From Aquilaria yunnanensis (taxonomy: Eukaryota > Streptophyta > Magnoliopsida > Malvales > Thymelaeaceae), in assembly GCA_039654915.1 (NCBI GenBank), contig CM077597.1, positions 87,236,001 to 87,300,000 of the forward strand: a stretch of DNA of 64,000 bases. Direction: 5' to 3'. Below, in pieces: positions 22,024 to 54,901 of this stretch. How positions within the stretch are numbered: position 1 is the stretch's first letter; each line of letters starts with the position of its first letter. Made by a program: the position numbers and the translations under genes. Under the pieces are notes generated by a model. It did no database searches. It saw only the letters and a program-made list of their open reading frames with translations, and had not been told where the DNA came from.

Positions 22024-22060
22024 CCATGACCAAATGATCCGCCAGGATCCATGGCTCGGA
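22024..22060 (+). other. LTR hairpin motif, copy 1
   Basis: CCATG...GATCC-GCCA-GGATC-CATGG: the inner GATCC/GGATC stem and the outer CCATG/CATGG arms can pair. First of four copies of a 37-bp motif in this LTR. Confidence 0.7.
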
Positions 22061-23882: not shown

Positions 23883-23893
23883 TGGCGACTCCA
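23883..23893 (+). repeat. primer-site-like sequence inside LTR end
   Basis: TGGCGACTCCA here is identical to the first 11 bases of the real primer site 34 bp downstream. Confidence 0.8.
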
Positions 23894-23916
23894 GAAAACC
23901 CGACGTTGCCACAGCT

Positions 23917-23935
23917 TGGCGACTCCACTGGGGAC
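23917..23935 (+). other. Ogre-1 primer binding site
   Basis: TGGCGACTCCACTGGGGAC, three bases after the LTR end. It fits the 3' end of a tRNA-Arg, the primer class reported for Ogre elements. Confidence 0.85.
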
Positions 23936-24414
23936 TCGACGTTAGTGAGTCGAGCCTAAAGTTGATTTGTTTTTTTATTTACTTTGCTTTACTATTATGT
24001 GGATTTATATATTATATTTACTTAAGTAAACATGCATAATGCATTCACAAAATGAAGCTCTATACCCGAGCTTCCTTAAATCAAACACGATTCTTTCTAA
24101 GCGGAATTGGTGTTGCTGTCCTTGTGAGGCCACGGTCTCCAAGCCTTCACCGGTTTCAAAGTAGCAAAGTAGTGTATTGCCTTCTGAGACGGTTAGTCTC
24201 TGCATGGGCCCACGAAAAGCTACGACTCGAATTAATCCATTCCTTACATAAACCCTAGAGGGTAAGGAATCGGGCCATCACTATGATTCAGTGACGGGAT
24301 TCGGGAACTATCCCTTGCCTTTTTGATAAACCACCTTCTGCATGTAGAATTCCTTGTGAGAAGCAACATTTTGGAAATCGCTTTTCAAAGGACTTCATCC
24401 CAATCGAAGCCTTT
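23936..24414 (+). other. Ogre-1 untranslated leader with a short ATG frame
   Basis: Leader between the primer site and ORF1. A 68-codon ATG frame (24052-24258) is kept in Ogre-2 (54565-54765) with a few changes. I see no domain in it; conservation may only reflect the close relationship of the two copies. It could act as an upstream ORF on the genomic RNA. Confidence 0.4.
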
Positions 24415-25227
24415 TTGAAAAGTGAAACCATTCATCACGACAGCAAGGAAGCATGGGTTGATTATTTCAAGAACATCACCGAATTCCAAATTGAATGGAG
24501 AGCCCCCTGGTCTACCTCCACCCGCGTTGTCTACCGTTGCGGCAATTGCCCGTGGGTTCCTCTCTTAGGTATATGGGGAGGAACAAGTTATGCCCCAGCT
24601 CAAGTACGAAAACAATTTGGGTCCATGCAATTTATACCCATGACGCATAATCTGAGTAAGTTGGAATTTTCACACGAAGATCCAAATTCAAATAAGCTCG
24701 CAATGGGTATTTCAGTTGCGTGGAAAAGAATTTTCATATTGAAGTCGGGGCCTATTATTTCTCCCACTGCTTATTATAAATCGAGAAATAACCGGAAGGA
24801 AGGAATAGTTCTATCTGAAGAGGTCATCAGAAAATTGGCAAAAAGAGAGTTGGAGAAAGAACTAGAGGAAGAAAAGGAGAAGAACAAGAGGATGCTCCTT
24901 GACATGCAACAGCTCGGTCACAAAACACAACTCCTCGAAGAGAAAGTTGAATACCAAAAACAAGTCATCTCCCAATTGGTTGATGAAACCGATCAAAAAG
25001 AGATGAGAGTCAGATACTGGGAAGATCAATACAGATTTTCTCAAGATCAATTGCAAACATTTTTAGTAGAAGTCAGAAAAGTTACAGAACAAGCCCAACT
25101 AATGGGCGAAGAAGCCAAGGAGTTAGAAGAACTGAGCTGTCCTACTCCATCAGTAAATGTTCAAAGAATGATGGAGTTCATATCTAAGGCCAGAAAGCAG
25201 TATTGTACTTTGGGTCGTTTCTTTTAA
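24415..25227 (+). CDS. Ogre ORF1 protein, N-terminally truncated
   Basis: The frame is open from about 24277 but has no ATG before the domain; the given start is a TTG, so the true start (or an upstream exon) is uncertain. Residues about 40-105 (VPLLGIWGGTSYAPAQVRKQFGSMQFIP) match the plant DUF7745/plant-mobile-domain-like proteins encoded as ORF1 in Ogre elements. Residues about 140-240 are a Lys/Glu-rich coiled coil (REL-KEL-EEE heptads). The family's long N-terminal part is missing, so this is probably an internally deleted version. The gene is absent from Ogre-2. The molecular function of Ogre ORF1 is unknown. Confidence 0.65.
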   Translation: MKSETIHHDSKEAWVDYFKNITEFQIEWRAPWSTSTRVVYRCGNCPWVPLLGIWGGTSYAPAQVRKQFGSMQFIPMTHNLSKLEFSHEDPNSNKLAMGISVAWKRIFILKSGPIISPTAYYKSRNNRKEGIVLSEEVIRKLAKRELEKELEEEKEKNKRMLLDMQQLGHKTQLLEEKVEYQKQVISQLVDETDQKEMRVRYWEDQYRFSQDQLQTFLVEVRKVTEQAQLMGEEAKELEELSCPTPSVNVQRMMEFISKARKQYCTLGRFF

Positions 25228-25414: not shown

Positions 25415-28400
25415 ATGGCAGAACAAGCCGAAGGACGTCTCATGGAGATGGAGTCCAAGATTGAAAGTATGTCAGAACAGATGAAACAATTGATGGAATT
25501 AATCAAAGGGAAAGCAACTCAAGTCCCCATCAAAGAAGTACAAGATCCCACTTATCCCCCGGGATTCACCCCGCAACGAGTCTCAGTCCAAGAAAACCTG
25601 TTTCAAGAATCAGGACCCTCTGCTAGTGTTCACCTGAAACAAGACACTGTACAGGAAGAGAAGAAGACATTACCAAAAGATGAAGCAGAATCTCAAAAAA
25701 TCGAGACAATAGAGAAAAGACTGAGAGCCATTGAAGGAGGCACTATATTCGGATCCCTTTCAGTGGATGACCTCTGCTTAGTGCCAGACGTCGTAATCCC
25801 TTCAGATTTTAAGGTGCCAGATTTCATAAAATACGATGGAACGAGTGATCCCATCACTCACATCACTTTGTTTCTCAGAAAACTACAACCACTTACCAAA
25901 GATGAGAAGGTGTGGATCGCACTTTTTTAGGAAAGTCTCACAAAATCAGCATTACAGTGGTATCTAAGCCAAGGTCCAAGAAACATAAAAACTTGGAATG
26001 ACCTTGCTCAGGCCTTCATCGGCAACTATAAACATGTTATGGACTTAGCTCCGGATCGCCAAACTCTCCAAAACATGGAGAAGAAAAAAACAGAAACTTT
26101 TAAGGAATACGCCCAACGATGGAGGGACTTAGCTGCACAAGTACAGCCACCCATGACAGAAAGAGAAATGGTCACTTTGTTTGTCCAGACACTGAAATAC
26201 CCATATTATGACAAACTTATTGGCAATGCGGCAACTAACTTCTCCGACGTAGTCATGTCTGGAGAAAGGATCGAGCATGGTATCAGGACCGGGAAGATTA
26301 CTGAGTCCTTTAGTGATCCTATGAAAAGAGGAGGACCATCCAGAAGAAAAGATGAAGAAATACAACAAATCGGACGAGGAAGAGGGATTCCCCTCGTGGG
26401 TACCGTGGCTACCGGACCTCGCCTATCCTATTCTGCCAACAGGCCCAATTATTATCCTACCAATAGGCCCAATGATTATCCTCCAAATAGGCCCAGTGAT
26501 TATCTTCCCAATAGACCCAACAATTATCCTCTCAACAGGCCTAATCAGTTACGGCCACCTGTTCCGACTCCTCCAATGCCTGCACCAAGACCAAGAGAAA
26601 TTTTCGCACCGATTCCCATGACTTATACTGAGTTATATCCAAAACTCATCCAGAGCCAACTCATTCACCCAATTCCCACAAGGCCATTCGAACCCCCATA
26701 TCCAACATGGTATGACCCTAAACTAAATTGCCCATATCATGATGGTGCCGTGGGCCACGGACTCGAAAATTGCATAGCATTGAAGCGTATAGTCCAACAA
26801 TTAATTGAGTCAAAGTGGTTGGACTTTTCCGATGAACCAAACGTCACTCATAATCCATTGCCTCCTCATCAAGCCAAACCAGTCAATATGATGGAAGAAT
26901 ACTGGCCGATGAAGAAAACAGTCAATGATATCATAACCCCTCTTAAGCATGTATATTCATGCCTTGTGAAAGAAGGGATTATCATAGGAAAGTCTTCTGG
27001 AAATAAAGAAGTCGAGCATGAGGAATGGTGCAACTTCCATAACAGTAAGAGTCATTCTATCCAAGAATGCCCAGAATTCCGTAAAAGTCTACAAAGTCTC
27101 ATGGACTCCTCCCAAATCATCGTTTTTATGTCAGATAAAGAGGATGACGTGAATGTGATAATTAAAGAACAAGAAGTCAATATCATGCCAAGGCCACTAG
27201 TCATTCCAATCTCAAAATCTGCTCTCAAGCCTTTAAGAATTCAAGTTCCAAAGCCATTCCCGTACAAATCAGACAAAACTGTTCCATGGAACTATGGCTA
27301 TACTTCTAACATCACATCAACTCTGTTAGAAGTTGGGGGCATGACTAGAAGTGGTCGGTGTTATTCTCCCGAGCAAATGAACAAGCTCCAACAAGAGAAG
27401 AATGTTACGGATCCAGCAAATGGACCTATTAACACATCTAAAGAGCAAGAGATACCTCGAGCAGTAACAGATGAACAAGCTACTGAGTTTCTCAAACTCA
27501 TAAAGCAAAGTGAATACAGCATCGTGAAGCAGTTGAACCGTCTGCCAGCAAAGATCTCCATACTTTCATTGCTCTTAAGTTCTGATGCCCATCGAGAAGC
27601 TCTTCTCAAAGTCCTGAATAAGGCTTATGTTGAACAAGATATCTCCGTGAACAACTTTGACCACCTTGTCAACAACATCGCGGCACAAAATCTCATCACA
27701 TTCACTGACGATGAGATACCAGCAGAAGGAAGGGGTCACTCTAAGGCTCTACATATTTCGATTAAATACAAAGATCGGATTATGGCTAGAGTTCTGATCG
27801 ACAATGGATCAGCTCTAAATGTAATGCCATTAGAAACTTTACATAAGATCGGTTTAGACCCATCACACCTCAACAACAGTCATATTGTTGTTCGAGCATT
27901 TGACGGAACAAAGAGAGATGTGGTTGGAGAAATAGAGCTACCAATTGGGATTGGTCCCTGTCTTTTCCATATCACATTCCAAGTCATGGACATTTCTCCA
28001 TCTTATACTTGTCTACTGGGAAGACCATGGATCCATATGGCTGGAGCAATTCCTTCCTCATTACATCAAAAAATGAAATTCATCATTGAAGGAAAGATAA
28101 TCACAGTCTTTGCTGAAGAAGACATTCTGCTATCTAGACCTGCGGATGCTCAATATGTTGAGGTCAATGAAAATATACCTGATTGCTCCTTCAGGTCTTT
28201 TGAGATTGTCAATGCTGCTTATGTCAGTGAATATGGAGAAGAACCCATTCCTAACATCTCTAAAACAAGTCGCATGGTCGCCAAACTCATGATAAAAGGA
28301 GGATACTCACCGGGGTTAGGTTTGGGACAAGATTTACAAGGAATCCCAGAGCCATTGAAAATATCCGCAAATGAAGGGAAATACGGCCTAGGCTTCACAC

Positions 28401-28726
28401 CGACAAGACATGATAAAATGAAGGCAATAGCTGAAAAAAGAGAAAAGAGGATTGCACGATTAACAGGGCATCCTCTCCAGGAAAGAAATCTGGATATCCC
28501 TGAAATCACCGAAACGTTCGTGAGTGGTGGTCTCATTCCGAAAAATGACAATGAAGGCAAGCTGACTATCAACATCAACAAGTCTTTTGAAAGTCTTTCT
28601 ATTCAGGCAATCATCAGCGATTCACCTGAAGAGGAGGAGCTCATTCAACCTTCTGGCCCACGGGATGTGCTGAACAATTGGGAGGCGATAGAACTGCCTG
28701 TTATAATTGAAAGCTTTCCAAAGTAA
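25415..28726 (+). pseudogene. Ogre-1 gag-protease with one in-frame amber codon
   Basis: Starts MAEQAEGRLMEMESK with a short coiled coil. The capsid-like gag domain spans about 115-290 (VPDFIKYDGTSDPITH...WRDLAAQVQPPMTE). A TAG at 25928-25930 interrupts it; the frame continues unchanged on the far side, consistent with CAG to TAG. Then come five NRPN(x)YP-type repeats, a Cys/His segment CPYHDGAVGHGLENC, a second one CNFHNSKSHSIQEC, the protease active site LIDNGSALNVMP (Asn in place of Ser/Thr after Asp), and a G-patch GGYSPGLGLGQDLQG near the end. The last codons overlap a splice donor leading to pol. Confidence 0.9.
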
Positions 28727-28925: not shown

Positions 28926-31900
28926 ACCCAAAACTCTCTTTGATGACAATGAAAGAATGAACTTTGATAATCCTGTAAACACTACCGACTCGGATGACGA
29001 AGATCTTCAAGTATCTCCTGAGCTATTAAAAATGATTGAGCGAGATGAAAAAGAAAGAGCAACAAGTCAAGAACCAACTGAGGTATTCAACCTGGGAGAT
29101 AGTCAGGATGTAAAAGAAGTCAAGATTGGCACTTTATTCCCTCCTGAAGAAAAAGAAGAATTAGTCCATTTATTGAAAGAATATGTGGATGTATTCGCTT
29201 GGTCATACCAAGATATGCCTGGCTTAAGCTCAGACATAGTACTACACAAAATACCTTTGAAGCCTGGGGCGAAGCCTGTCAGACAGAAGTTATGAAGATT
29301 AAAGCCGGAGTTAATCTTAAGAGTAAAAGACGAGATTCGAAAGCTGTGGGATGCAGGATTTCTTGGGGTCGCTGAATATACAGAATGGGTGGTTAACATT
29401 GTCCCAGTCGAAAAGAAAGAAAGTGGGAAACTAAGAGTTTGTCAGGACTACCGGCCTTTGAACGAAGCCAGTCCTAAAGATAACTTCCCACTTCCTCATA
29501 TTGATACACTGGTGGATAATACCGCAGGAAACTCCTACTTTTCCTTCATGGATGGTTTTTCTGGATACAATCAAATCAAACTTGATCCAGATGACATGAT
29601 AAAAACTGCTTTTATTACCCTTTGGGGTACCTTCTACTATAAGGTGATGCCTTTCGGGTTAAAGAATGCTGGTGCTACATATCAAAGAGCCATGGTCACG
29701 TTGTTCCATGACATGATGCATAAAGAAATTGAAGTATATGTGGACGACATGATCACCAAAACTTTCACTGCTGGGGGGCATCTAAAAGTGCTAAGAAAAC
29801 TATTCGATAGACTTCGCAAATATCAATTGAAGTTGAATCCTGCCAAATGTACTTTTGGAGCCTCTTCAGGAAAGTTATTGGGTTTCATAGTCAGCAAGGA
29901 CGGGATTCGAGTTGACCCGAGTAAAGTCAAAGCGATACAAGAAATGCAACCCCCGAAGACTCCAAAACAAGTAAGAAGTTTTCTGGGTAGAATCAACTTC
30001 ATAGCAAGGTTCATATCACAATTGACGTCCAAGTGTGAACCGCTTTTCAAATCACTAAATAAGAACAATCCGATTGAGTGGAATAACGAATGCCAAGAAA
30101 CGTTCGAGAAAATCAAACGATATCTATCAAATCCACCAGTCTTGATACCACCTCGATCCGGAGAACCGTTGATTCTATATTTATCCATACAGGATTCTTC
30201 ATTAGGATCCGTATTGGGTCAACGTGATGAGACAAGCAAGAAGGAGCATGCAATTTACTATTTGAGCAAAAAGCTTACCACATATGAAGCTAAATACTCA
30301 ATAGTAGAAAAGTCCTGTTGTGCCCTTGCATGGGTAGCACATCGACTACGACACTACATGCTCAACAACACAACATTACTGATCTCCAAGACTGACCCCA
30401 TTAAGTACATTTTCGAGAAACCCGCTTTATCAGGCAGGATTGCAAAATGGCAAATGCTGTTATCTGAATACGACATACAGTATGTCACCCAAAAGGCCGT
30501 AAAAGGAAGTGTGATCGCTGAATATCTGGCTGATAGAGCATTGGAGGATTATGAGCCCATGAGAATGGACTTTCCTGATGGAGATATAATGACGATAGAA
30601 CAGGAAGTCGATGAAGAAAATGAAACATGGAAAATGGCATTCGATGGAGCATCTAATGCTTTGGGACAAGGGATCGGAGCTATACTCATCTCTCCAAGCG
30701 GAGAGCAGTTTCCCCTCACAGCAAAAATTACATTTCCTTGTACCAACAATATAGTAGAGTATGAAGCATGTGCTATGGGACTCCAAATGGCATTGGATTT
30801 GAAAGTGCGAGATCTCCGAGTCTATGGGGATTCCGCATTAGTCATATATCAAATCAATGGAGAATGGGAGACAAGAGATTCAAAATTAATCCCTTACCAA
30901 AAGCTTATAATAGACATGACTCGAAGATTTAACAATATAAGTTTCCATCATCTTCCAAGGGAAGATAATCAAATCCCAGACGCTTTAGCTACTTTGGCTG
31001 CTATGTACAAGATAAGCGACCCTGAGCATACTCCTGTGTTCGAGATGAAAATAATAGATTCTCCAGCTTATTGCATGAGCATCGAAGAAGAATTGGATGG
31101 AAAGCCTTGGTATCATGATATCAAGAAATACCTCCAAGAACGAACATATCCACTAGAAGCATCAGAAAATGACAAGAAATTTCTACGAAGATTGTCAATG
31201 AGTTTTCTTTTAAACCTAGACATACTCTACAAGAAAACCCCAGACTCGATGCTACTTCGCTGTGTAGATACTCATGAAGCACGAAAGATCATGGAAGAAG
31301 TTCATTCTGGAATATGTGGAGCACACACTAGTGGTCATACCATGGCAAGACAAATAATGAGGGCTGGCTACTATTGGCTCACATTGGAAAGTGATTGTAT
31401 TAATCACGTGAGAAAATGTCACAAATGTCAAATATATGCCGACAAGATCCAAGCTCCACCCACCCCTCTTAATGTAACAGCAATACCTTGGCCTTTTGCC
31501 ATGTGGGGAATTGACGTCATTGGAGCCATTACCCCTAAAGCTTCCAATGGTCACAAATTCATCCTAGTGGCAATTGACTACTTCACTAAATGGGTAGAAG
31601 CTATGTCATATGCAAGTGTGACTCAAAAGGTGGTATGCCGGTTCATTAAGAAAGAAATCATTTGTCGCTATGGGCCGCCGGAATGTATCATCTCAGACAA
31701 TGCCACGAACCTGAACAATGCAATGATGCAGACTTTGTGCCGGCAGTTCAAAATCAAACATCTCAATTCGGCACCTTATCGACCAATGATGAATGGTGCA
31801 GTAGAAGCGGCCAATAAAAATATCAAGAGAATTGTTGAAAAGATGATCGTCACTTACAAGGACTGGCATGAGATGTTACCTTTTGCACTACATGCTTATA

Positions 31901-32355
31901 GAACTTCTACCCGTACTTCTACTGGAGCAACACCTTTTTCTCTGGTATACGGTATGGAGGCTGTATTGCCCATCGAAGTTGAAATTCCTTCATTAAGGGT
32001 ACTAATGGATACTCAATTAAGAGAAGCAGAATGGGTCAAAGCTAGATACGAGCAATTAAATCTAATTGATGAAAGAAGAATGATAGCCCTCTGCCATGGG
32101 CAACTTTATCAAAGAAGGATGATTCGTTCTTACAACAAAAAGGTTCGCCCACGACAATTTCACGAGGGTGACATAGTGCTCAAGAACATTTTACCCATGC
32201 AACATGATTCAAGAGGAAAATGGACACCAAATTATGACGGGCCATATGTCGTGAAGAAAGCATTTTCAGGAGGGGCACTAATTCTGACAGAAATGGATGG
32301 ACGAGAATTACCGAAGCCAGTAAATTCGGATGCAGTAAAGAAATACTTTGCATAA
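28926..32355 (+). pseudogene. Ogre-1 RT - RNase H - archaeal RNase H - integrase, one nonsense codon
   Basis: The exon starts at 28926 after splicing; the first ATG is 28957. A TGA at 29293-29295 stands where Ogre-2 has CGA. Order: RT with YVDDM (about 29740); Ty3-type RNase H (LGSVLGQRD...AIYYLSKKL); a second, archaeal-type RNase H (MAFDGASN, EYEACA, GDSALV, NQIPDALA); integrase HHCC (CHKCQIYAD), D,D,E at GIDVIGAI, ISDNATN and NGAVEAAN; and a C-terminal GPY/F-like NYDGPYVVKK. No chromodomain. Dual RNase H and lack of chromodomain mark the Tat lineage. Confidence 0.93.
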
Positions 32356-33698: not shown

Positions 33699-34247
33699 AT
33701 GGATCCTACTTTTTCCGCCTTGCGAAAGTATTTCCCTTCTCTCCCAATGAACATCCTAAAAAAGATCTACCGAGTTCGCTGTGAACGATTAAGAGCTCTG
33801 ATGCACAAAGGAATACCTGAAGATGTACGGTGGTTAATCGAAGCCAAGGTTCGTCTGGCAGGTGAAATCCCAGAGACATTTGCATCTTACATGCCTGGTG
33901 TTGGCAAAAGTTCTTATGCCAGAAAAAGAAGAGCGAAAAGATTACAAGTCTGCCATAAATGTGGTAGGTGGACTTGTAAAACTAGGTGTCGTTCTTTAGG
34001 AATGATCTCCAATAATCGAGAAGATAAAATACGGTTCATCAAGAATGGCTTGAGTAAGGACTCATTGGATGATATCCAATTGACTCTTGAGACGCATTCT
34101 TGTGGATCTGTGCAACGTGAAATTCTTGATTTATGGAGTATTTTTCATGAAGAACGAGACCGTTACAGTCCCGGGAATCTGACTTTAAACGACCCTGTTT
34201 GCCGGTTTGTAAGAAAGCTGGATGGGAAGCAGATCCTCGACTCATAG
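33699..34247 (+). CDS. cargo gene A: basic Cys-cluster protein (182 aa)
   Basis: First of three tandem paralogues. Residues 1-50 form a conserved helical N-terminus (LRKYFPSLP...RCER). At about 69-82 is a Gly-Lys-Ser-rich turn running into a basic stretch (YARKRRAKRL). A Cys cluster CX2CX4CX3C lies at C85, C88, C93, C97, then FIKNGL at 113-118 and LNDPVC near the end. Basic stretch plus Cys cluster plus following FI-x-G pattern resembles the nucleic-acid-binding cysteine-rich proteins of carla-, allexi- and vitiviruses, several of which are silencing suppressors. That assignment is inference. No signal peptide or membrane segment. The frame is intact and nearly identical in Ogre-2. Confidence 0.8.
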   Translation: MDPTFSALRKYFPSLPMNILKKIYRVRCERLRALMHKGIPEDVRWLIEAKVRLAGEIPETFASYMPGVGKSSYARKRRAKRLQVCHKCGRWTCKTRCRSLGMISNNREDKIRFIKNGLSKDSLDDIQLTLETHSCGSVQREILDLWSIFHEERDRYSPGNLTLNDPVCRFVRKLDGKQILDS

Positions 34248-34409
34248 AAGCCGTTAATGCCGTTACTGGACGTAAAACCAGTGGAAGATGTGAGCCACAG
34301 TCACAATTACTGTACATACAGTTTGTTATATTTGGAAAAATTTGCATTTTCTTTTGACAGATGTACATGCTCCCCTAAGTGTAATCGACACGTTATCCCT
34401 TTTCATCAC

Positions 34410-34416
34410 TATAAAT
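34410..34416 (+). promoter_or_regulatory. TATA box of cargo gene B
   Basis: CACTATAAATGCG, 127 bp upstream of the gene B ATG. The same context precedes gene C and both Ogre-2 counterparts. Confidence 0.6.
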
Positions 34417-34536
34417 GCGTGTTCTTCCTTCTGATTAAACAACAGATAAGATACCCCGTGACTTCTAAAGTCGGTTATTCCAGTTTCCTGCAATAACTGA
34501 TTCATTTCCCTCTTCTCTCAAATTCTTCTCTCATCA

Positions 34537-35085
34537 ATGGATTCTACTCTTTCTGTACTGCGAAAATACTTTCCTTCCCTCCCACTAAAAGTCCTTAAAA
34601 AGATCTACCTTGCTAGATGTGAAAGAATCAGAGTTTTTACACGCAAAGGCATTCCCGATAATGTGCAGTGGATAATTGAAGCTAAGGTCCGTTTGGCGGG
34701 TGAAGTTCCAGATGCATTTATGCCCCGCATGCCCGGTTTAGGTAAAAGCCGTTATGCCAAAAGGCGAAGAGCAAAGAGACTAGGCGTGTGTTATAAATGT
34801 GGACGATGGAATTGTAATACTAAATGTCGCTTTTTAGGATACATCTCCAGAAATCATGAAGATAAAAGAAAATTCATCAAGAACGGCCTGCGTAAGGAAT
34901 CTTTGGATGATATCCTATTAACTTTTGAAACACATTCTTGTGAAATAGTGCAATGGGAAATTATGGATTTATGGTGGACTTTCCGTAAAGAGCAGGATCG
35001 TTACAGTCTTGGAAATCTAACTTTTAATGACCCTGTTTGCCAGTTTGTGAGAAAACTGGATGGGAAGCAAATCCCCGACTTATGA
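34537..35085 (+). CDS. cargo gene B: basic Cys-cluster protein (182 aa)
   Basis: Paralogue of gene A with the same 182-residue length. The N-terminus is LRKYFPSLP; basic stretch YAKRRRAKRL; Cys cluster CYKCGRWNCNTKC; then KFIKNGL and FNDPVC. It is preceded by its own leader (an AACTGATTC-type segment shared with gene A) and TATA box, so it is probably transcribed separately. Compared with the Ogre-2 copy, residues 1-97 differ once, residues about 98-165 differ about twenty times, and the last 17 are identical. That points to a recombined tract. Putative RNA-binding or silencing-related role by resemblance only. Confidence 0.78.
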   Translation: MDSTLSVLRKYFPSLPLKVLKKIYLARCERIRVFTRKGIPDNVQWIIEAKVRLAGEVPDAFMPRMPGLGKSRYAKRRRAKRLGVCYKCGRWNCNTKCRFLGYISRNHEDKRKFIKNGLRKESLDDILLTFETHSCEIVQWEIMDLWWTFRKEQDRYSLGNLTFNDPVCQFVRKLDGKQIPDL

Positions 35086-35187
35086 AGGCATTAAAGCCAT
35101 TACTGGACATGAATTAGTGGAAGATGAGAGCCACAGTCATGATTGCTGTACATATAAGCTGTCATTTGTCTTTTCTTTTGGCAATAA

Positions 35188-35203
35188 TGTACTTACTTCC
35201 GTA
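35188..35203 (+). promoter_or_regulatory. palindrome upstream of cargo gene C
   Basis: ACTTAC-TTCC-GTAAGT inverted repeat 30 bp before a TATA box. Possible transcription-factor site; present in Ogre-2 too. Confidence 0.4.
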
Positions 35204-35233
35204 AGTGTAATAAACGCATTATCCTTTCATCAC

Positions 35234-35240
35234 TATAAAT
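35234..35240 (+). promoter_or_regulatory. TATA box of cargo gene C
   Basis: CACTATAAATGCG context identical to that before gene B, 115 bp upstream of the ATG at 35349. Confidence 0.6.
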
Positions 35241-35348
35241 GCGTGTTCTTCCTTCTGGATACGGTACTCCATAACTCCCAAATTCAGTTATTTCCATTTC
35301 CTACAATCACTAATTTCTTTCTTTTTCTCTTAAATGCCTCATTCATCA

Positions 35349-35897
35349 ATGGAGCCTTCTCTTTCCGCTCTACGAAAATATTTCCCTTCTTTCCCAATAA
35401 ATGTTCTTAAAAAGGTTTATCAAGCTAGATGTGAACGATTCCGACTATTTATGCACAAAGGCATTCCTGATAATGTGCGATGGCTAATCGAAGCTAAAGT
35501 TCGTTCGGCTGGTGAAGTTCCAGATGCGTTCTTTCCCCGTATGCCCGGCTTTGGTAAAAGCGTTTATGCCAAAAAGAGAAGAGCAAAGAGGCTAGGCGTC
35601 TGTCACAATTGTGGATGGTGGATTTGCGGCAATAAATGTCGTTCTCCAGGAGTGATCACCAGAAATCGTAATGATAGAATAAAATTCATCAAGAATGGCT
35701 TGCGTAAGGAATCTCTGGAAGATATCCGAGAGGTTCTTGAAGCGCATTCTTGCGGAATAGTGCAATTTGAGGTTGTTGGATTATGGATAATTCTCCAAAA
35801 AGAACGAGAACGTTACAGTCTTGGGAATCTGACCCTAAACGACCCTGTTTGCCAGTTTGTGAAAAAGCTAGATGAGATGCAAATCACTGATTCATAG
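35349..35897 (+). CDS. cargo gene C: basic Cys-cluster protein (182 aa)
   Basis: I chose the second ATG (35349, MEPSLSALRK) rather than 35334, because it aligns with the starts of A and B and gives the same 182 residues. Cys cluster CHNCGWWICGNKC; basic stretch YAKKRRAKRL; FIKNGL; LNDPVC. The protein is identical in Ogre-2 over its full length. The cluster differs from A and B by having Trp-Trp after the second Cys and a Gly-Asn insert region. Same putative nucleic-acid-binding role; function unproven. Confidence 0.78.
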   Translation: MEPSLSALRKYFPSFPINVLKKVYQARCERFRLFMHKGIPDNVRWLIEAKVRSAGEVPDAFFPRMPGFGKSVYAKKRRAKRLGVCHNCGWWICGNKCRSPGVITRNRNDRIKFIKNGLRKESLEDIREVLEAHSCGIVQFEVVGLWIILQKERERYSLGNLTLNDPVCQFVKKLDEMQITDS

Positions 35898-36486: not shown

Positions 36487-36797
36487 ATGGAGAAAACCCC
36501 AACTCGTAAATCCCGAAGTATTTGTGTATTTTCTGGGGCTTTTCCTGGAAAAGATGAAGAGTATTTAAAAGCAGCCAACCATTTGGGTAGAGTATTAGCT
36601 GAGCGAAAAATACATTTAGTTTATGGAGGAGGTAGTGTCGGATTAATGGGAGGTGTAGCATCAGCAGCATCTCTAGGAGAAAGTCAAGTTCTGGGCATTA
36701 TCCCTGGACCTCTGAAATTTATTTCTGGGGGCACGATTGGAGAAGAATTAGTGGTTAAAAATTTACAAGAGCGTGTGTTACAAATGCTTTTAAATGC
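36487..36797 (+). pseudogene. LOG cytokinin-activating enzyme, 5' half (split by Ogre-2)
   Basis: Start ATG 36487 (MEKTPTRKSRSICVFSG). Contains the nucleotide-binding N-terminus, LVYGGGSVGLMGGVA and the VVKNLQERVLQMLLNA region, then is cut after AATGC by the Ogre-2 LTR. The other half is at 58633-58956. Without the insertion the frame would be continuous, as shown by the intact Ogre-2 copy. LOG proteins are phosphoribohydrolases that convert cytokinin nucleotide monophosphates to free bases in the cytosol and nucleus. Plant LOG genes normally have several introns; this one has none. Confidence 0.92.
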
Positions 36798-39700
36798 TGT
36801 GGCAACGTCGGGTTTTCTGGAGTCGCCACCAATCTGTTTTTTTCTTAGGTCGATTGGATACCTAAAATATGGTCTGTGAGAGTTCGGGGATCGGGAGTAC
36901 GGTTACGTTAAAACAACTTTGTTAAAACGCCCAAAAATTGGCACCTTAGTTGATTTTAATTTTGTTTTACTTTGCTTTTAAAACTTTTCAGTTAATTTAG
37001 ATATTTTACCTGAATTAGTCGAAAATGTGGATTTTGGTAATTAATTCGGATAAAATTTTATACTTCCGAACCATGGACTCTGCCGAGTCATTTGGACACG
37101 GAAGATTTTGATTCCGAACCATGGACTCTGCCGAGTCATTTGGACACGGAATTTGGTGAAATTTTAAACAATCAATCCATATCGTAAAAATATGGATTTT
37201 TATCTTTTTATTTAATTTATTTATTTTAAAAGTTTGATATTTTCCAAACCGTAGATCCTGCCGGATCATCCGGATATGGAAATTGATTTAATTTATCGTA
37301 ATTATTTAATTCTTATTATTAATTTTTAGTTTAATTACTAAATTTATCTTTATATTTTTACTTTTTCTTTCTTTCTTTTTCTTCTTATTTTTACTTTTTA
37401 ATTTTCTTTTCTTTTCTTTCTTTTGTTTTCTTTTTCTTATCTTTCTTTTCTTTTTCTTATCTTTTCTTTTTTTGATTTTTTTCTTGTTTAATGAAGGATA
37501 TTTATTATTTAAAGAATTACTCAATTTATAAAAGAATTAAAAAAAATTAATTTTTTTATTTAATAAGAAGTTAATTTAAAGGAATCAAAGAATTTAAAAA
37601 TAAAAATTTTGATCATGGTACAGGGCGTTGTTACTCAGCCAGACCCTCTTCACCAGGTGAAGCAGCTGAAAAGCGGGCACGAGACAGTTTCCAGCCAATA
37701 TACCATGAACTAAAATTTTTTATTTTTTTTTTATTATTTTTTTATTTTTTTTATTATTTTTTTTTTATAAAAGATTAACCAAAAGTAATTGTTTTATTAA
37801 GAGAATCAAAAATTTATATGTATATTTTAAACAAAAGAAGAAAAGTTTTGATATTTATTTAATTTATTTTGGAATAAAAGATTATTTAACTGAAAACTTA
37901 TATGTATTTTAAAACAAAAGTCTTGATATTTTTATTTTTTATATTCTTCTTTGTTTGATGAAAGATTTTTTTTTTAATTTTAATTTATATTTCTGAAAAT
38001 ATATCTAATCAATAAGTCAAAAATATTTAAGAGAAAATTCAATTATTTTTGTTTTATTTTGTATTATTTTGAAATTATTTGATTAAGATTTTTATAAAGG
38101 AAACAAAAAGTTATATCTTTTAATAAGTAAAATATTACTGAATAAAATATTAACCCAAAATTTTTATTCTTTTCATTCTTTTTATTAATAAAGAAAACTA
38201 AAAAAAATTATATTTTAAAAGAAATAAATAAAATATTATTGAAAAATATTAACTCAAAATTTACTCTTTTTATTCTTTTTATTAATAAAGAAAACTAAAA
38301 AAAAGTTATATTTTAAAAGAAATAAATAAAATATTACTGAAAAATATTAACCCAAAATTTACTCTTTTTATTCTTTTTAATAAAGAAAACTAAAAAAAAT
38401 TATATTTTATTATTTTAAAAGAAATAAATTTTACTGAAAAATATTAACCCAAAAAATTACTTTTTTTATTCTTTTTACTAAAAAATTTATATTTTATTAT
38501 TTTAAATAAAATATTACTGAAAAATATTAACCCAAAAATTTTACGCTTTTTATTCTTTTTATTAATAAATAAAACTAAAAAAATTATATATTAATAGATA
38601 ATTAATATATTAGTCTAAAGTTTTTTTTTATTTTTTATAAAGAAAAAAATTTATTTATATATTTTATTTAAAAATATTTCCGAGCCATGGATCCTGGCGG
38701 ATCATTTGTTCATGGAGTTTTAATTTTTTTTTATTTCATTAATTATTAATTTTAAAGATGTATTAAAATAATGATTTTATGTTTATTTATTTATTTATTT
38801 TATTTTTGAATTATTTCATTATGTTTGTTTATTAAAAGGAATAAAAACTTTGTTTCAAAATAAAAAAAAAAAAAAAGTAATTTTTATTAGCCTTTAGAAA
38901 ATTATTCACATAAAATTCCTTTTTTTATCTTTTAATCATAAAAAAATTCAATTAATAAAGTGGGGCTTTTTGGCCATCCACTTTAATAACACAATAATAA
39001 TAAAAGTTAGCACAATTAATATAGTTAGATTAGTTGGATTAGTTAGTTAATAACAATAAAAAAAGGTTAGTAAAAGTTAGATTAAATTAATTAACAACAA
39101 TAATAAAAATTAGCCAAGTTTAATTAAATTAATTGTTAACAACAATAATAAAAGTTAGCCAAGTTTAATTAAGTTAATTAATTAACAACAATAATAAAAG
39201 AGTTAGCCAAGTTAATTAAGTTAATTAACCAAGTTAATTAAATTAATTAATTAACAACAATAAAAAAGTTAGTAAGTTAGTTGTTAGTTGTTAGTTGTTA
39301 ATAACAACAATAAAAGAAGGGTTAGTAATAAACAAATAATAAACAAACAAGTAAAAATTAAAAAGGTTAGTAATTAATTCTGCAAGAACAAAATAAAAAA
39401 GTTAGTGACTCAATAGAAAGAAATTGAAAAGTTGAATGATTAAATGAGAGTTTACCCTTTTAAAATCAATTTTTTTGAATTTTATGGAAACAGGGAAACG
39501 ACGACGAACGCAGGCGTGGCTGGGCGTGCAGGGGAGCAAGGGAGGAGGGGAGGGAGGCTGACGCGAGGGCGGCGTGCCAGGCGAGGCGGTACGGCGGCAG
39601 GACGGCTACGGGCGAGGCGGCACGGCGGCGGGACGGCAACGGGCGAGGCAGCAAGGCGGCGGGACGACGTGGCGAGGGTAGGGTGACGCGGCGAGGGCGG

Positions 39701-40528
39701 CGCGGCGAGGCGGTATGGTGGCAGGACGGCGACGGGCGAGGCGGCATGGCGGCGGGACGGCAACGGGTGAGGCAGCACGGCGGCAGGAGGAGAAAGAGAG
39801 AGAAAACGAGAGGAGAGAGAGAGAGAACAACGAAGGAGATCAAACGAAAGAGATGGTCAAATCGTAGAAAAATAAAATTTTGAGACTTTCTGGCAGAAGG
39901 AGGAGAGGCTAGGGAATAAGGCTGTAATTTTCTCTATTTTTAAAACGGAGCTCTGAACTTTTTTCTCTGATTCTCTGTGTGTTCAGCACTGAATTTGGGG
40001 GGGTATTTATAGAAGGAGCTTAGCTGAACTGTGGACGGATAAATTAATAAAAAATATCAAACTTATCTTTTAAATTGGTAAAATGACAGTTTCAGTCCTT
40101 TACGTTACTCCAGCTCTGGATAAGCTCAGAAGCTTCTGATTTTGACAATTTTAACGTTTTCTGTCAATTTGGGCTAGAAACGTCCGTTTAGGCCCAAAAT
40201 TGACGCGAAAAATTACACAAAGCTCCTGAAACTTTCAGAATTTGTCAATTTTATCCGAAACTTCTCAATTTTGTCATTTTTACCTCAAACTTTTAATTTT
40301 TTTGTCATTTTTTTCTGAAATTTTATTTTTATTCCAAACACATACATATTCACACATATATTATTTTAAATCAAATCTTCTCAAAATAAAAATATATTTT
40401 AAACTAATTAACATAATTAAAATTTTTTAGCAATAATAATAATAATAATAATAATTTTTTTAATTAGTTTTTTTTTTAAATTTTTTTTTTTTTTTTAAAA
40501 AAAGGCCGGACGAAATTGGGTGTCAACA
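36798..40528 (-). repeat. Ogre-2 3' LTR (3731 bp)
   Basis: Ends TG...CA in sense (TGTTGACACC to TTGCCACA). Same sub-features as the Ogre-1 LTR: TATA box near 40002-40009, GC minisatellite about 39500-39785, GC island 37612-37710, hairpin motifs about 37065-37152. Confidence 0.95.
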
Positions 40529-40543
40529 GCTGCCCCCCTTTGC
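40529..40543 (-). other. Ogre-2 polypurine tract
   Basis: Sense GCAAAGGGGGGCAGC immediately before the 3' LTR; the plus-strand primer site for reverse transcription. Confidence 0.85.
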
Positions 40544-40659
40544 ATGCTTCATGGGACATGATGTATGCAAAGTAGTTACCAAATTTCGTCCGTCTTAGCT
40601 AGCCATTGAGAACATTCTCGCCGCCTAAACTATGTGGTTAAGGAAAATTTTTTTTAGAG

Positions 40660-43600
40660 CCTCTGCGATAAGAACTCTCCTATCGTTGAAGGGAAAATTT
40701 GATAATTTTGAGGTTAAGGGTCCTACCTTAGAACCTCGACGATAGGAACTCTCCTATCGTTTGAAGTAAAATTGATTGTTTTGAGGTTAAGGGTCCTACC
40801 TTAGAACTTCGACGATAGGAACTCTCCTATCGTTTGAAGGAAAATTGATGATTTTGAGGTTAAGGGTCCTACCTTAGAACCTCGACGATAGGAACTCTTC
40901 TATCGTTTGAAGTAAAATTGATTGTTTTGAGGTTAAGGGTCCTACCTTAGAACCTCGACGATAGGAACTCTCCTATCGTTTGAAGGAAAATTGATGATTT
41001 TGAGGTTAAGGGTCCTACCTTAGAACCTCGACGATAGGAACTCTCCTATCGTTTGAAGGAAAATTGATGATTTTGAGGTTAAGGGCCCTACCTTAGAACC
41101 TCGACGATAGGAACTCTCCTATCGTTTGAAGAAAAATTGATGATTTGAGGTTAAGGGCCCTTCCTTAGAACCTCGACAATAGGAACTCTCCTATCGTTTG
41201 AAGGAAAATTGATGATTTTGAGGTTAAGGGCCCTACCTTAGAACCTCGACGATAGGAACTCTCCTATCATTTGAAGGAAAATTGATTGTTTTGAGGTTAA
41301 GGGTCCTACCTTAGAACCTCGACGATAGGAACTCTCCTATCGTTTGAAGGAAAATTGATGATTTTGAGGTTAAGGGTCCTACCTTAGAACCTCGACGACA
41401 GGAACTCTCCTATCGTTTGAAGGAAAATTGTTTGAATGAGGTTAAGGGTCCTACCTTAGAACCTCGACGATAGGAACTCTCCTATCGTTTGAAGGAAAAT
41501 TGATGATTTTGAGGTTAAGGGTCCAACCTTAGAACCTCGACGATAGGAACTCTCCTATCGTTTGAAGTAAAATTGATTGAATGAGGTTAAGGGTCCTACC
41601 TTAGAACCTCGACGATAGGAACTCTCCTATCGTTTGAAGGAAAATTGATGATTTTGAGGTTAAGGGCCCTACCTTAGAACCTCGACAATAGGAACTCTCC
41701 TATCGTTTGAAGGAAAATTGATGATTTTGAGGTTAAGGGTCCTACCTTAGAACCTCGACAATAGGAACTCTCCTATCGTTTGAAGGAAAATTGATGATTT
41801 TGAGGTTAAGGGCCCTACCTTAGAACCTCGACGATAGGAACTCTCCTATCGTTTGAAGGAAAATTGATTGTTTTGAGGTTAAGGGTCCTACCTTAGAACC
41901 TCGACGATAGGAACTCTCCTATCGTTTGAAGGAAAATTGATGATTTTGAGGTTAAGGGTCCTACCTTAGAACCTCGACGATAGGAACTCTCCTATCGTTT
42001 GAAGGAAAATTGATGATTTTGAGGTTAAGGGTCCTACCTTAGAACCTCGACGACAGGAACTCTCCTATCGTTTGAAGGAAAATTGTTTGAATGAGGTTAA
42101 GGGTCCCACCTTAGAACCTCGACGATAGGAACTCTCCTATCGTTTGAAGGAAAATTGATGATTTTGAGGTTAAGGGTCCTACCTTAGAACCTCGACGACA
42201 GGAACTCTCCTATCGTTTGAAGGAAAATTGTTTGAATGAGGTTAAGGGTCCTACCTTAGAACCTCGACGATAGGAACTCTCCTATCGTTTGAAGGAAAAT
42301 TGATGATTTTGAGGTTAAGGGCCCTACCTTAGAACCTCGACGATAGGAACTCTCCTATCGTTTGAAGAAAAATTGATGATTTGAGGTTAAGGGCCCTTCC
42401 TTAGAACCTCGACAATAGGAACTCTCCTATCGTTTGAAGGAAAATTGATGATTTTGAGGTTAAGGGCCCTACCTTAGAACCTCGACGATAGGAACTCTCC
42501 TATCGTTTGAAGGAAAATTGATTGTTTTGAGGTTAAGGGTCCTACCTTAGAACCTCGACGATAGGAACTCTCCTATCGTTTGAAGGAAAATTGATGATTT
42601 TGAGGTTAAGGGTCCTACCTTAGAACCTCGACGATAGGAACTCTCCTATCGTTTGAAGGAAAATTGATGATTTTGAGGTTAAGGGTCCTACCTTAGAAGC
42701 TCGACGACAGGAACTCTCCTATCGTTTGAAGGAAAATTGTTTGAATGAGGTTAAGGGTCCCACCTTAGAACCTCGACGATAGGAACTCTCCTATCGTTTG
42801 AAGGAAAATTGATGATTTTGAGGTTAAGGGTCCTACCTTAGAACCTCGACGACAGGAACTCTCCTATCGTTTGAAGGAAAATTGTTTGAATGAGGTTAAG
42901 GGTCCTACCTTAGAACCTCGACGATAGGAACTCTCCTATCGTTTGAAGGAAAATTGATGATTTTGAGGTTAAGGGCCCTACCTTAGAACCTCGACGATAG
43001 GAACTCTCCTATCGTTTGAAGAAAAATTGATGATTTGAGGTTAAGGGCCCTTCCTTAGAACCTCGACAATAGGAACTCTCCTATCGTTTGAATGAAAATT
43101 GATGATTTTGAGGTTAAGGGCCCTACCTTAGAACCTCGACGATAGGAACTCTCCTATCGTTTGAAGGAAAATTGATTGTTTTGAGGTTAAGGGTCCTACC
43201 TTAGATCCTCGACGATAGGAACTCTCCTATCGTTTGAAGGAAAATTGATGATTTTGAGGTTAAGGGTCCTACCTTAGAACCTCGACGACAGGAACTCTCC
43301 TATCGTTTGAAGGAAAATTGTTTGAATGAGGTTAAGGGTCCTACCTTAGAACCTCGACGATAGGAACTCTCCTATCGTTTGAAGGAAAATTGATGATTTT
43401 GAGGTTAAGGGTCCTACCTTAGAACCTCGACGATAGGAACTCTCCTATCGTTTGAAGTAAAATTGATTGAATGAGGTTAAGGGTCCTACCTTAGAACCTC
43501 GACGATAGGAACTCTCCTATCGTTTGAAGGAAAATTGATGATTTTGAGGTTAAGGGCCCTACCTTAGAACCTCGACAATAGGAACTCTCCTATCGTTTGA

Positions 43601-44355
43601 AGGAAAATTGATGATTTTGAGGTTAAGGGTCCTACCTTAGAACCTCGACAATAGGAACTCTCCTATCGTTTGAAGGAAAATTGATGATTTTGAGGTTAAG
43701 GGCCCTACCTTAGAACCTCGACGATAGGAACTCTCCTATCGTTTGAAGGAAAATTGATTGTTTTGAGGTTAAGGGTCCTACCTTAGAACCTCGACGATAG
43801 GAACTCTCCTATCATTTGAAGGAAAATTGATGATTTTGAGGTTAAGGGTCCTACCTTAGAACTTCGACGATAGGAACTCTCCTATCGTTTGAAGGAAAAT
43901 TGATGATTTTGTGGTTAAGGGTCCTACCTTAGAACCTCGACGACAGGAACTCTCCTATCGTTTGAAGGAAAATTGTTTGAATGAGGTTAAGGGTCCCACC
44001 TTAGAACCTCGACGATAGGAACTCTCCTATCGTTTGAAGGAAAATTGATGATTTTGAGGTTAAGGGTCCTACCTTAGAACCTCGACGACAGGAACTCTCC
44101 TATCGTTTGAAGGAAAATTGTTTGAATGAGGTTAAGGGTCCTACCTTAGAACCTCGACGATAGGAACTCTCCTATCGTTTGAAGGAAAATTGATGATTTT
44201 GAGGTTAAGGGCCCTACCTTAGAACCTCGACGATAGGAACTCTCCTATCGTTTGAAGAAAAATTGATGATTTGAGGTTAAGGGCCCTTCCTTAGAACCTC
44301 GACGATAGGAACTCTCCTATCGTTTGAAGGAAAATTGATGGAATGAGGTTAAGGA
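40660..44355 (-). repeat. Ogre-2 tandem hairpin array (about 50 x 73 bp)
   Basis: The unit in sense contains ACGATAGGA-GAGT-TCCTATCGT (9-bp stem, 4-base loop) and GAGGTT..AAGG-loop-CCTT-AACCTC (10-bp stem with a 2-base bulge). Unit length is 71-74 bp. Variant units recur in blocks, for example GGGCCCTTCC at 41155, 42391, 43045 and 44281. The array lies between LOG and the polypurine tract, the place where Ogre elements are known to carry variable tandem repeats. Confidence 0.95.
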
Positions 44356-44889
44356 AATCTCCTTGAACCTCGAGCGAAATTTATATGAAATCAATTAGAA
44401 TTGGAATAATTTTCTTCGAAAGTGTGAATTTGCATAATAGGCGAGTGCGAAATTTTAGACTTCGATAAAATGAGTGAATCTTGATGATGACAATATCGCT
44501 AACAAATTATGTAAAGGGAACGGATGTTTGGAATCAATATCCAAGGTTCATCTAATATTTTCTTTAGTAAATATAGATTCGCTTGAGAGATATGTCATCC
44601 AAATAAGGTTGAAGCTTAACTATCCTAAAATGTTATGCCTAGTAGACCTAATAGGATGCGTCTCAAGAGCAATAAAAATTACTCTTTACTCAGCCATTCC
44701 AACCTAAAGGCATTGTCCTATGGTTTTAATATCAGCATGGACGAGACTATCTTATAAGATAAAAAAGAAATTCCCTGAAAGAAAAACTAAAACACGAAAG
44801 AAAATGCTGATAATAAAACTAAAGGACAAGCAAAACGGATCGGATCACTTCTTCTTCCACAATATTTCAACAGGGTTAGTAGAGGACTA
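44356..44889 (-). other. Ogre-2 LOG 3' flank
   Basis: Non-coding, AT-rich. No motif recognised beyond similarity to 58957-59493 of Ogre-1. Plus-strand frames here are antisense and lack domains. Confidence 0.5.
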
Positions 44890-54898: not shown

Positions 54899-54901
54899 AG
54901 C

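What the first reader, a model, noticed from the sequence alone, without database searches (positions are those of the whole stretch)
33699..35897. Triplicated retrotransposon cargo genes resembling viral RNA-binding cysteine-rich proteins
Three adjacent 182-residue proteins share a basic YA(R/K)(K/R)RRAKRL stretch, a CX2CX4CX3C cluster and an FIKNGL segment. This pattern is close to the nucleic-acid-binding proteins of carla-, allexi- and vitiviruses, some of which suppress RNA silencing. Such genes inside an Ogre element would be a transfer between RNA virus and retrotransposon lineages. I know of no described Ogre with such genes.
Basis: partly seen in the sequence, partly recalled or inferred. 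Interest (0 to 1): 0.92.

Follow-up and report, generated by a model that had tools for sequence, protein, structure and literature searches.

The report
Viral-type RNA-binding genes in a retrotransposon
A plant jumping element carries three tandem genes that match the profile of plant-virus RNA-binding proteins, next to a gene matching a hormone-activating enzyme, and the set likely helps the element withstand the plant's RNA silencing.

Summary
Three tandem 182-codon genes (33699-34247, 34537-35085, 35349-35897) each exceed Pfam's curated cut-offs for both Viral_NABP and Carla_C4. They are under purifying selection (dN/dS 0.21-0.30 between paralogs) and have 119 relatives at E <= 0.001; the 12 rows that name an organism all name a plant. 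Shuffle controls show that the match is more than a basic patch plus cysteines. First, the window holds two nested copies of one Ogre-type (Tat) element: E1 on + and E2 on -, E2 sitting inside E1's next cargo gene with a 5-bp target duplication. Second, that cargo gene, intact in E2, is LOG-type (cytokinin-activating), and NABP and LOG relatives also occur together elsewhere. LOG cargo is in print; my searches found no paper with viral-type NABPs in retrotransposons. Likely reading: a counter-defence and host-conditioning cassette. Silencing suppression, enzyme activity, and the direction of any virus-retroelement transfer are untested.

The parts
20221..23913 (+). E1 5' LTR (TG...CA, about 3.7 kb)
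   Evidence: self-comparison; boundary letters; K2P to the visible part of the 3' LTR 0.0085
23916..23934 (+). E1 primer-binding-site-like stretch just after the 5' LTR (TTGGCGACTCCACTGGGGA)
   Evidence: letters; tRNA-Arg assignment is recalled, no tRNA was compared
24295..25227 (+). E1 open frame upstream of gag, DUF7745 (PF24924)
25931..28726 (+). E1 gag (partial frame), aspartic-protease-like region, G-patch
   Evidence: an in-frame stop separates it from the open frame 25361-25927
29296..32355 (+). E1 pol: RT, RNase H, second (archaeal-type) RNase H, integrase
33699..34247 (+). NABP1, 182 aa
   Evidence: Viral_NABP 28.2 bits, Carla_C4 27.9 bits
34537..35085 (+). NABP2, 182 aa; TATA-like CTATAAAT at 34409
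   Evidence: Viral_NABP 34.7 bits, Carla_C4 24.9 bits
35349..35897 (+). NABP3, 182 aa; TATA-like CTATAAAT at 35233
   Evidence: Viral_NABP 26.6 bits, Carla_C4 21.9 bits
35944..36359 (+). 87-bp repeat array (4.9 copies) upstream of LOG, followed by TATA-like TCTATAAATA at 36445
36487..36797 (+). E1 LOG, 5' part, cut by the insertion of E2 (rest at 58638-58956, stop included)
   Evidence: target duplication AATGC at 36793-36797 and 58633-58637
36798..58632 (-). E2: second copy of the element, inserted antisense in E1's LOG gene; 5' LTR 58632-54902, 3' LTR 40528-36798
   Evidence: LTR K2P 0.0070
44890..45519 (-). E2 LOG, intact 209 aa with PGGFGTLGE
46109..46657 (-). E2 NABP3
46922..47470 (-). 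E2 NABP2
47760..48308 (-). E2 NABP1
49675..53109 (-). E2 pol, split by one in-frame stop
40654..44354 (-). E2 73-bp tandem array (about 51 copies) between LOG and 3' LTR
58638..60917 (+). E1 continuation: rest of LOG and 73-bp array (about 18 copies)
60918..64000 (+). E1 3' LTR, cut by the window end

Best explanation
An Ogre-type (Tat) LTR retrotransposon carries, between integrase and 3' LTR, three tandem genes that match the betaflexivirus nucleic-acid-binding-protein (NABP) profiles followed by a LOG-type gene, and this cassette likely works as counter-defence plus host-cell conditioning. Shown: the gene order, the profile matches, purifying selection on the NABPs, an intact LOG frame (in E2) with the PGGxGTxxE signature, and recurrence of NABP and LOG together outside this window. 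Inferred: the NABPs are homologous to (not merely like) the viral proteins; they would bind RNA through the basic stretch and the cysteine cluster and blunt RNA silencing of the element's transcripts; the LOG enzyme would release active cytokinin and push the cell toward division, which would raise the chance that new copies reach the germ line; NABP2, NABP3 and LOG would be transcribed from their own TATA promoters rather than only from the LTR.
For: Pfam cut-offs passed by 3 of 3 window NABPs for both families; 52 of 52 members of one alignment match Carla_C4 and 50 of 52 Viral_NABP at E <= 0.1. Controls: with the 25-residue basic-plus-Cys motif kept and the flanks shuffled, 0 of 4 reach either cut-off (Viral_NABP 16.1-20.8 bits against 34.7 for the real protein); with the motif shuffled, 0 of 3 match at all. 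BFVD: 28 of the 31 named matches in ranks 1-35 are described as RNA silencing suppressor (13) or nucleic-acid/RNA-binding protein (15), best E 0.0093; 19 of 21 named in ranks 1-24 with the other model. Third shared block: NREDKIRFIKNG against the Grapevine virus A block printed in PMC9104223 (passage); as good in 8, 331 and 7 of 5000 shuffles for NABP1, 2, 3. dN/dS 0.21-0.30. LOG: TIGR00730 149.6 bits, cut-off 96.35; best PDB match At2g37210, E 9.3e-52. Pairing: P0081 and P0109 are single annotated proteins joining NABP and LOG sequence; 5 contig lengths above 2000 shared by NABP and LOG rows, one of them a whole chromosome, against 0.06 expected. TATA: 10 of 11 CTATAAAT in the window lie in the four LTRs or upstream of NABP2, NABP3 and LOG in both copies. 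A carlavirus and a vitivirus NABP suppress silencing in published assays (passages).
Against: No viral protein was reached by sequence search, so homology rests on profiles and on ranks, and no tree with viruses was made. Masking the basic stretch alone removes both Pfam matches. 4 of the 13 NABP-type proteins scanned one by one stay below both cut-offs (P0217, P0082, P0081, P0109). One of three controls that kept only C, K and R of the motif in place still scored 31.7 bits for Viral_NABP. The NABP2 block is matched by 331 of 5000 shuffles. Structure models are of low to moderate confidence (pLDDT 58.7 and 66.2), TM-scores are low, and the PDB gives nothing. Cysteine spacing C-X2-C-X4-C-X3-C differs from the carlavirus spacings printed in PMC3689765 and PMC13304225 (passages). 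Chrysanthemum virus B p12 is reported unable to suppress local silencing but to act as a transcription factor (PMC3689765 passage). LOG is below the NCBI equivalog cut-off (98.7 against 300). Correlation of NABP and LOG divergence over six paired loci is weak (r 0.50, 52 of 720 permutations as high). No expression data. Neither copy in the window is fully intact.
Confidence: 0.5

Rival explanations
1. The NABPs serve the element directly rather than against silencing: as an extra nucleocapsid or RNA chaperone, or as a DNA-binding regulator of the element's own promoters.
For: Basic stretch plus cysteine cluster suits any nucleic-acid binding; the TRP28 proteins of Retand elements are predicted to bind DNA (PMC11963269 abstract and passages); a carlavirus NABP acts as a transcription factor (PMC3689765 passage); the stretches before cargo genes and the LTRs share CTATAAAT.
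Against: No zf-CCHC (nucleocapsid) match was listed for the three proteins or among the nine families; the named nearest neighbours in the viral library are annotated as silencing suppressors (13) or nucleic-acid/RNA-binding proteins (15) among 31 named, which does not by itself exclude this rival.
Confidence: 0.3
2. The resemblance to viral NABPs is convergence: a basic helix followed by a short cysteine cluster arose independently in a plant-specific retrotransposon protein.
For: Most of the profile score depends on the basic stretch and cysteines; cysteine spacing is not the carlavirus one; no viral protein found by sequence search (the list was capped at 120 of 722).
Against: Flanks add about 14-19 bits to Viral_NABP and 5-9 to Carla_C4 beyond the motif, and 0 of 4 flank-shuffled controls pass; three blocks lie in the same order as in Grapevine virus A p10; viral NABPs fill the top ranks with two models.
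Confidence: 0.15
3. The cargo is inert baggage: captured once, carried along and decaying.
For: E1's LOG is interrupted and neither copy is fully intact; window LOG lacks the C-terminal LxLxL tail seen in 100 of the 120 listed relatives.
Against: dN/dS 0.21-0.30 over three paralogs; all six NABP frames and one LOG frame open; 111 of the 120 listed LOG relatives keep PGGxGTxxE; NABP-LOG pairing outside the window.
Confidence: 0.05

Closest known systems
Betaflexivirus cysteine-rich / nucleic-acid-binding proteins (PF05515 Viral_NABP, PF01623 Carla_C4)
   Same: Profile match over up to 87 residues, arginine-rich stretch then cysteine cluster then a D-x3-F-x-K-x-G block as in Grapevine virus A
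   Different: Encoded three times in tandem in an LTR retrotransposon; 182 aa against 62-225 aa for the 35 top viral matches, 21 of them 97-139 aa and some fragments; C-X2-C-X4-C-X3-C spacing
LOG/YgdH-bearing Gypsy-type elements of Citrus and Populus (PMC9289625 section 12; Steinbauerova et al. 2011, abstract recalled, paper not held)
   Same: LOG-type extra gene in a Ty3/gypsy element
   Different: No NABP is mentioned in that section; the recalled abstract speaks of Athila-like elements, here the host element has the Tat-type second RNase H
Phalaenopsis Ty3/gypsy elements with an AlkB RNA demethylase (PMC9289625, abstract and section 12)
   Same: Giant Ty3/gypsy element carrying a gene type also found in flexiviruses (AlkB in flexiviruses: recalled), read as counter-defence
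   Different: Different protein; shown active in vitro there, nothing tested here
[quoted passage not shown]
   Same: Long pol-3' LTR region with extra genes and tandem arrays; Grande gene reported with its own promoter (reference title only)
   Different: The Retand genes with known domains are antisense and of other families (mostly TRP28); here all four cargo genes are sense

Membership tests
Betaflexivirus NABP (Viral_NABP / Carla_C4) | Score above the curated Pfam cut-off | tested here: met
   3 of 3 window proteins for both families; of 10 relatives scanned singly, 6 pass at least one and 4 pass neither
[quoted passage not shown]
   cluster in 131 and basic motif in 124 of 150 aligned proteins
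Betaflexivirus NABP (Viral_NABP / Carla_C4) | Cysteine spacing of carlaviruses (C-X2-C-X9-C-X4-C, C-X2-C-X12-C-X4-C as printed) | tested here: not met
   Window has C-X2-C-X4-C-X3-C; printed spacings; the vitivirus one (C-X-C-X4-H-X4-C as printed) is nearer
Betaflexivirus NABP (Viral_NABP / Carla_C4) | 3'-proximal gene of a positive-strand RNA virus | tested here: not met
   Lies in an LTR retrotransposon
Betaflexivirus NABP (Viral_NABP / Carla_C4) | RNA binding and silencing suppression | not testable with these tools
   bench assays needed
Ogre (Tat) retrotransposon | Second RNase H between RNase H and integrase | tested here: met
   definition in PMC6317226 passages, which it shares with Retand
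Ogre (Tat) retrotransposon | Placement in the Ogre branch rather than Retand by an RT tree | not tested
   no reference RT sequences at hand; 5' sense open frame and 3.7-kb LTR point to Ogre (recalled)
LOG cytokinin riboside 5'-monophosphate phosphoribohydrolase | TIGR00730 fold family and PGGxGTxxE motif (motif recalled) | tested here: met
   149.6 bits over cut-off 96.35; PGGFGTLGE
LOG cytokinin riboside 5'-monophosphate phosphoribohydrolase | NCBI equivalog model NF058542 above its cut-off | tested here: not met
   98.7 bits against 300
LOG cytokinin riboside 5'-monophosphate phosphoribohydrolase | Enzyme activity | not testable with these tools
   needs purified protein

The most novel reading that the evidence does not exclude
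Plant Ogre/Tat and Athila-like retrotransposons and flexiviruses share one mobile counter-defence gene, a silencing-suppressing RNA-binding protein; in eudicot retrotransposons it travels with a cytokinin-activating LOG gene (in many relatives ending in an EAR-like LxLxL tail) as a portable cassette that disarms silencing and drives host cells to divide, each gene on its own promoter.
Probability: 0.3. Interest if true: 0.92.

Novelty: new variant of a known kind. Interest (0 to 1): 0.77.

Why it matters
Extra genes of plant retrotransposons are mostly of unknown function. A cassette pairing a virus-type RNA-binding protein (a class with published silencing suppressors) with a cytokinin-activating type of enzyme gives a direct, testable hypothesis for how giant elements evade silencing and reach dividing cells. 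It would also link gene pools of positive-strand RNA viruses and LTR retrotransposons in plants, in one direction or the other, and the LOG copies complicate the counting of true host LOG genes in genome annotations.

Tried and rejected
Viral relatives by DNA scan of viral contigs with one window protein and with alignment A3: none confirmed. Viral NABPs by the large protein search: 722 proteins at E <= 10, only the best 120 listed; the 6 listed rows that name an organism name plants, and any viral hit would be hidden below the cut; hence no tree with viruses. PDB sequence search for NABP2: three gap-junction proteins at E 0.68-4.3, not meaningful. PDB fold search: two matches at E 5.9 and 9.5. 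NCBIfam on NABP2: no family. Rfam and tRNA scans of the window: nothing. Sigma-70-type promoter scan: no more than in shuffles, and the wrong promoter type for a plant. Co-divergence of NABP and LOG: weak. The LOG tree sets 62 rows (61 thinned from 116 of the 120 listed hits, plus the window) apart from two Arabidopsis LOGs (100/100), but those rows were picked by similarity to the window and only two host proteins were used, so it does not prove a single capture. Idea that the large inverted repeats mean a foldback element or a misassembly: rejected, because TSD, LTR ends and the restored reading frame of LOG fit a nested insertion. Idea that the cluster is a nucleocapsid zinc knuckle: no zf-CCHC match listed. 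Of the 10 shared contig lengths, I set aside 4 because the two ORFs do not fit in contigs of 905 or 1018 bases, and the Xanthoceras one says only same chromosome; that leaves 8723, 4511, 2425, 2128 and 1386.
Full report
WHAT IS THERE. Three tandem ORFs of 182 codons lie at 33699-34247, 34537-35085 and 35349-35897 on the + strand. Copies 2 and 3 are 69% and 66% identical to copy 1; all share a basic stretch, C-X2-C-X4-C-X3-C at residues 85-97 and FIKNGL.

THE HOST ELEMENT. Self-comparison with the boundary letters resolves the window into two copies of one LTR retrotransposon. E1 is on the + strand: 5' LTR 20221-23913, internal region to 36797 and again from 58638 to 60917, 3' LTR from 60918 to beyond the window. 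E2 is on the - strand (36798-58632) and sits inside E1: its LTRs start TG and end CA, and AATGC is duplicated on both sides (36793-36797, 58633-58637). LTR divergence (K2P) is 0.0070 for E2 (26 differences in 3728 columns) and 0.0085 for the visible part of E1 (26 in 3074), so both insertions look young. E1 encodes DUF7745, gag, an aspartic-protease-like region (IDNGSALNVMP), G-patch, RT, RNase H, a second RNase H and integrase. The second RNase H between RNase H and integrase is the mark of Ogre and Retand in PMC6317226 (passages); I call it Ogre-type because of the sense open frame upstream of gag and the long LTR (recalled criteria), not by a tree. Neither copy is whole: E1 has an in-frame stop in the gag region and its LOG gene is cut by E2; E2 lacks most of the stretch that corresponds to 24.35-28.03 kb of E1, the gag domain included, and has one in-frame stop in pol.

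THE FOURTH GENE. In E2 it is intact: 209 codons at 45519-44890 on the - strand, with PGGFGTLGE. It matches TIGR00730 at 149.6 bits (cut-off 96.35) and the cytokinin phosphoribohydrolase equivalog model at 98.7 (cut-off 300, so not reached). Its best solved relative is At2g37210 (2a33, E 9.3e-52). In E1 the same gene is interrupted by E2; with the flanks joined the frame is open over 209 codons, two amino acids different.

IS THE VIRAL MATCH REAL? All three proteins pass the curated cut-offs of Viral_NABP (28.2, 34.7, 26.6 bits; cut-off 23) and Carla_C4 (27.9, 24.9, 21.9; cut-off 20.9), and nothing else passes. In an alignment of 52 family members, 52 match Carla_C4 and 50 Viral_NABP at E <= 0.1. 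Against: of 10 relatives scanned singly, P0003, P0085, P0128, P0029, P0071 and P0097 pass at least one cut-off, while P0217, P0082, P0081 and P0109 pass neither. Masking the basic stretch removes both matches, masking the cysteines lowers both below the cut-off, and masking both leaves nothing. Shuffling everything outside the 25-residue motif also lowers both families below cut-off in 4 of 4 trials (Viral_NABP 16.1-20.8 bits, Carla_C4 16.0-20.3); shuffling the motif leaves 0 of 3 matches; shuffling only the residues of the motif that are not C, K or R gives Viral_NABP 16.2, 31.7 and 19.8 and Carla_C4 18.7, 9.0 and 18.8. So motif and flanks both contribute. A third block fits: PMC9104223 prints, after the arginine-rich motif KRRRARR and the zinc finger of Grapevine virus A p10, a conserved HKLDRLRFVKEGRV, which that paper says is not conserved in the other vitiviruses (passage). 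The window proteins have NREDKIRFIKNGLS, NHEDKRKFIKNGLR and NRNDRIKFIKNGLR starting nine positions after the last cysteine of the cluster; a score as good anywhere in the protein occurs in 8, 331 and 7 of 5000 shuffles.

FOLD. AlphaFold2 models are weak (mean pLDDT 58.7 with 52 sequences, 66.2 with 150), helices only. In the viral library no match reaches E 0.001 and TM-scores are low (TMq up to 0.33), but the ranking is one-sided: with the better model, 28 of 31 named matches in ranks 1-35 are described as RNA silencing suppressor (13) or nucleic-acid/RNA-binding protein (15), best E 0.0093; four of the 35 have no name. With the other model it is 19 of 21 named in ranks 1-24. Sources include Cherry mottle leaf virus, Potato virus H, Indian citrus ringspot virus and Garlic virus X. 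Of ranks 36-45 none of the seven named is a plant-virus protein. The PDB gives two matches at E 5.9 and 9.5. Because Foldseek scores letters as well as shape, this supports sequence kinship more than fold identity.

SELECTION. dN/dS (Nei-Gojobori) between the three paralogs is 0.21, 0.26 and 0.28 in E1 and 0.28, 0.26 and 0.30 in E2, at dS 0.57-0.90. Between E1 and E2 it is 0.20 for NABP1 and 0.35 for NABP2; NABP3 is identical. I read this as three copies each kept functional as proteins after an old triplication.

DISTRIBUTION AND PAIRING. 119 of 156 candidates pass E <= 0.001; 12 rows name an organism (Xanthoceras, Acer, Rhamnella, Orobanche, Citrus), and one unnamed row (P0015) carries the JGI name 'Viral nucleic acid binding'. 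A profile search adds Populus and Parasponia among 120 listed of 722 at E <= 10. Two annotated proteins join NABP and LOG sequence (P0081 Rhamnella, P0109 Citrus). P0071 joins an integrase-end-like stretch and NABP, P0097 a protease-like stretch and NABP (the stretches look Athila-like, which is recalled; Pfam lists no retroelement domain there). The LOG search scored the 7999 candidates sharing most words and returned 7834 at E <= 0.001 with 120 listed, many from Reevesia chromosomes, also Xanthoceras, Paulownia, Populus, Diplodiscus and Parasponia. Matching contig lengths and sources between 220 NABP rows and 87 of the 120 LOG rows gives 10 pairs (mean 1.8, maximum 8 in 2000 trials with jittered lengths), 5 of them longer than 2000 (mean 0.06, maximum 2); four short ones cannot hold both ORFs and I discard them. 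NABP and LOG therefore recur as a pair, though equality of length is not a look at the contig, and most sources are unnamed. Over six paired loci the divergences correlate weakly (r 0.50, 52 of 720). Of the 120 listed LOG relatives 111 keep PGGxGTxxE, and 100 end in LxLxL, which resembles the EAR repression motif (recalled); the window LOG has no such tail in any of the three frames read past its end.

EXPRESSION. CTATAAAT occurs 11 times on both strands of the window. Ten are in the four LTRs (sense) or upstream of NABP2, NABP3 and LOG in both copies (sense); TCTATAAATA occurs 6 times, in the four LTRs and before both LOG genes. The copies are not independent of each other. The stretches before NABP2 and NABP3 are homologous to the stretch after NABP3 and before LOG (scores 81 and 84, maxima of 300 shuffles 44); the stretch before NABP1 is not (22, maximum 39), but matches those before NABP2 and NABP3 (94 and 65). 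I infer that a unit of NABP plus its downstream promoter was duplicated, so that NABP2 and NABP3 inherited the LOG-type promoter; NABP1 has no CTATAAAT upstream. No transcript was examined.

MECHANISM. [quoted passage not shown] From this I infer a counter-defence role for the retrotransposon NABPs and, with LOG, a push of the host cell toward division. Every functional step is untested. The rival that NABP serves the element as chaperone or promoter regulator stays open.

WHAT IS KNOWN. LOG/YgdH in Citrus and Populus LTR retrotransposons is in print (PMC9289625 section 12, which also lists G-patch and PMD). That section, the part of PMC7264820 that I read (part 1 of 3) and the passages of PMC6317226, PMC11963269 and PMC11728184 that I saw do not mention NABP. 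Searches for Ogre with carlavirus NABP, LTR retrotransposon with Carla_C4 (no paper with both among the best), Viral_NABP with retrotransposon and flexivirus CRPs with retrotransposons in plant genomes (two listings, neither on this) found no such report. Chiba et al. 2011 (PMC3136472, passages) report an endogenous betaflexivirus replicase in cucumber and have no occurrence of 'nucleic acid-binding' or 'NABP'. Subscription papers are mostly outside this library. Extra ORFs in giant Ty3/gypsy elements are a known kind; a virus-type NABP array with LOG is a new variant of it.

CHANGES ON CHECKING. Rereading the calls moved three boundaries by one or two bases (E1 5' LTR and primer-site stretch, E2 3' LTR start), mended the end of E1's LOG, the bits that flanks add, and the wording on named sources and on viral annotations.

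Noticed in passing
34835-36797 against about 47172-45207: E1 and E2 are mosaic: bins of 400 bases over the shared internal region mostly differ by 0.3-1.5% (up to 4% near 32435), then 39 mismatches in the bin from 34835 and none in 35235-36434, as after recombination or template switching near the end of NABP2.
   Followed up: partly
44890-45519 and proteins P0221-P0340: 100 of 120 listed LOG relatives end in an LxLxL tail (EAR-like, recalled); window LOG lacks it. Whether host LOGs have it was not tested beyond the aligned parts of two Arabidopsis proteins.
   Followed up: partly
40654-44354 and 59492-60793: 73-bp tandem array between LOG and 3' LTR, about 51 copies in E2 and 18 in E1: length polymorphism between young copies.
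   Followed up: no
53982-54465: E2 lacks the gag domain and most of the DUF7745 frame but keeps pol, NABPs and LOG, and yet has young LTRs; either mobilised in trans or deleted after insertion.
   Followed up: no
15169-18829: Ty1/copia element on the - strand with gag, integrase and RT domains left of E1.
   Followed up: no
P0227-P0339 (Reevesia pubescens rows): LOG-type 'hypothetical proteins' on many Reevesia chromosomes are probably retrotransposon copies annotated as host genes.
   Followed up: no
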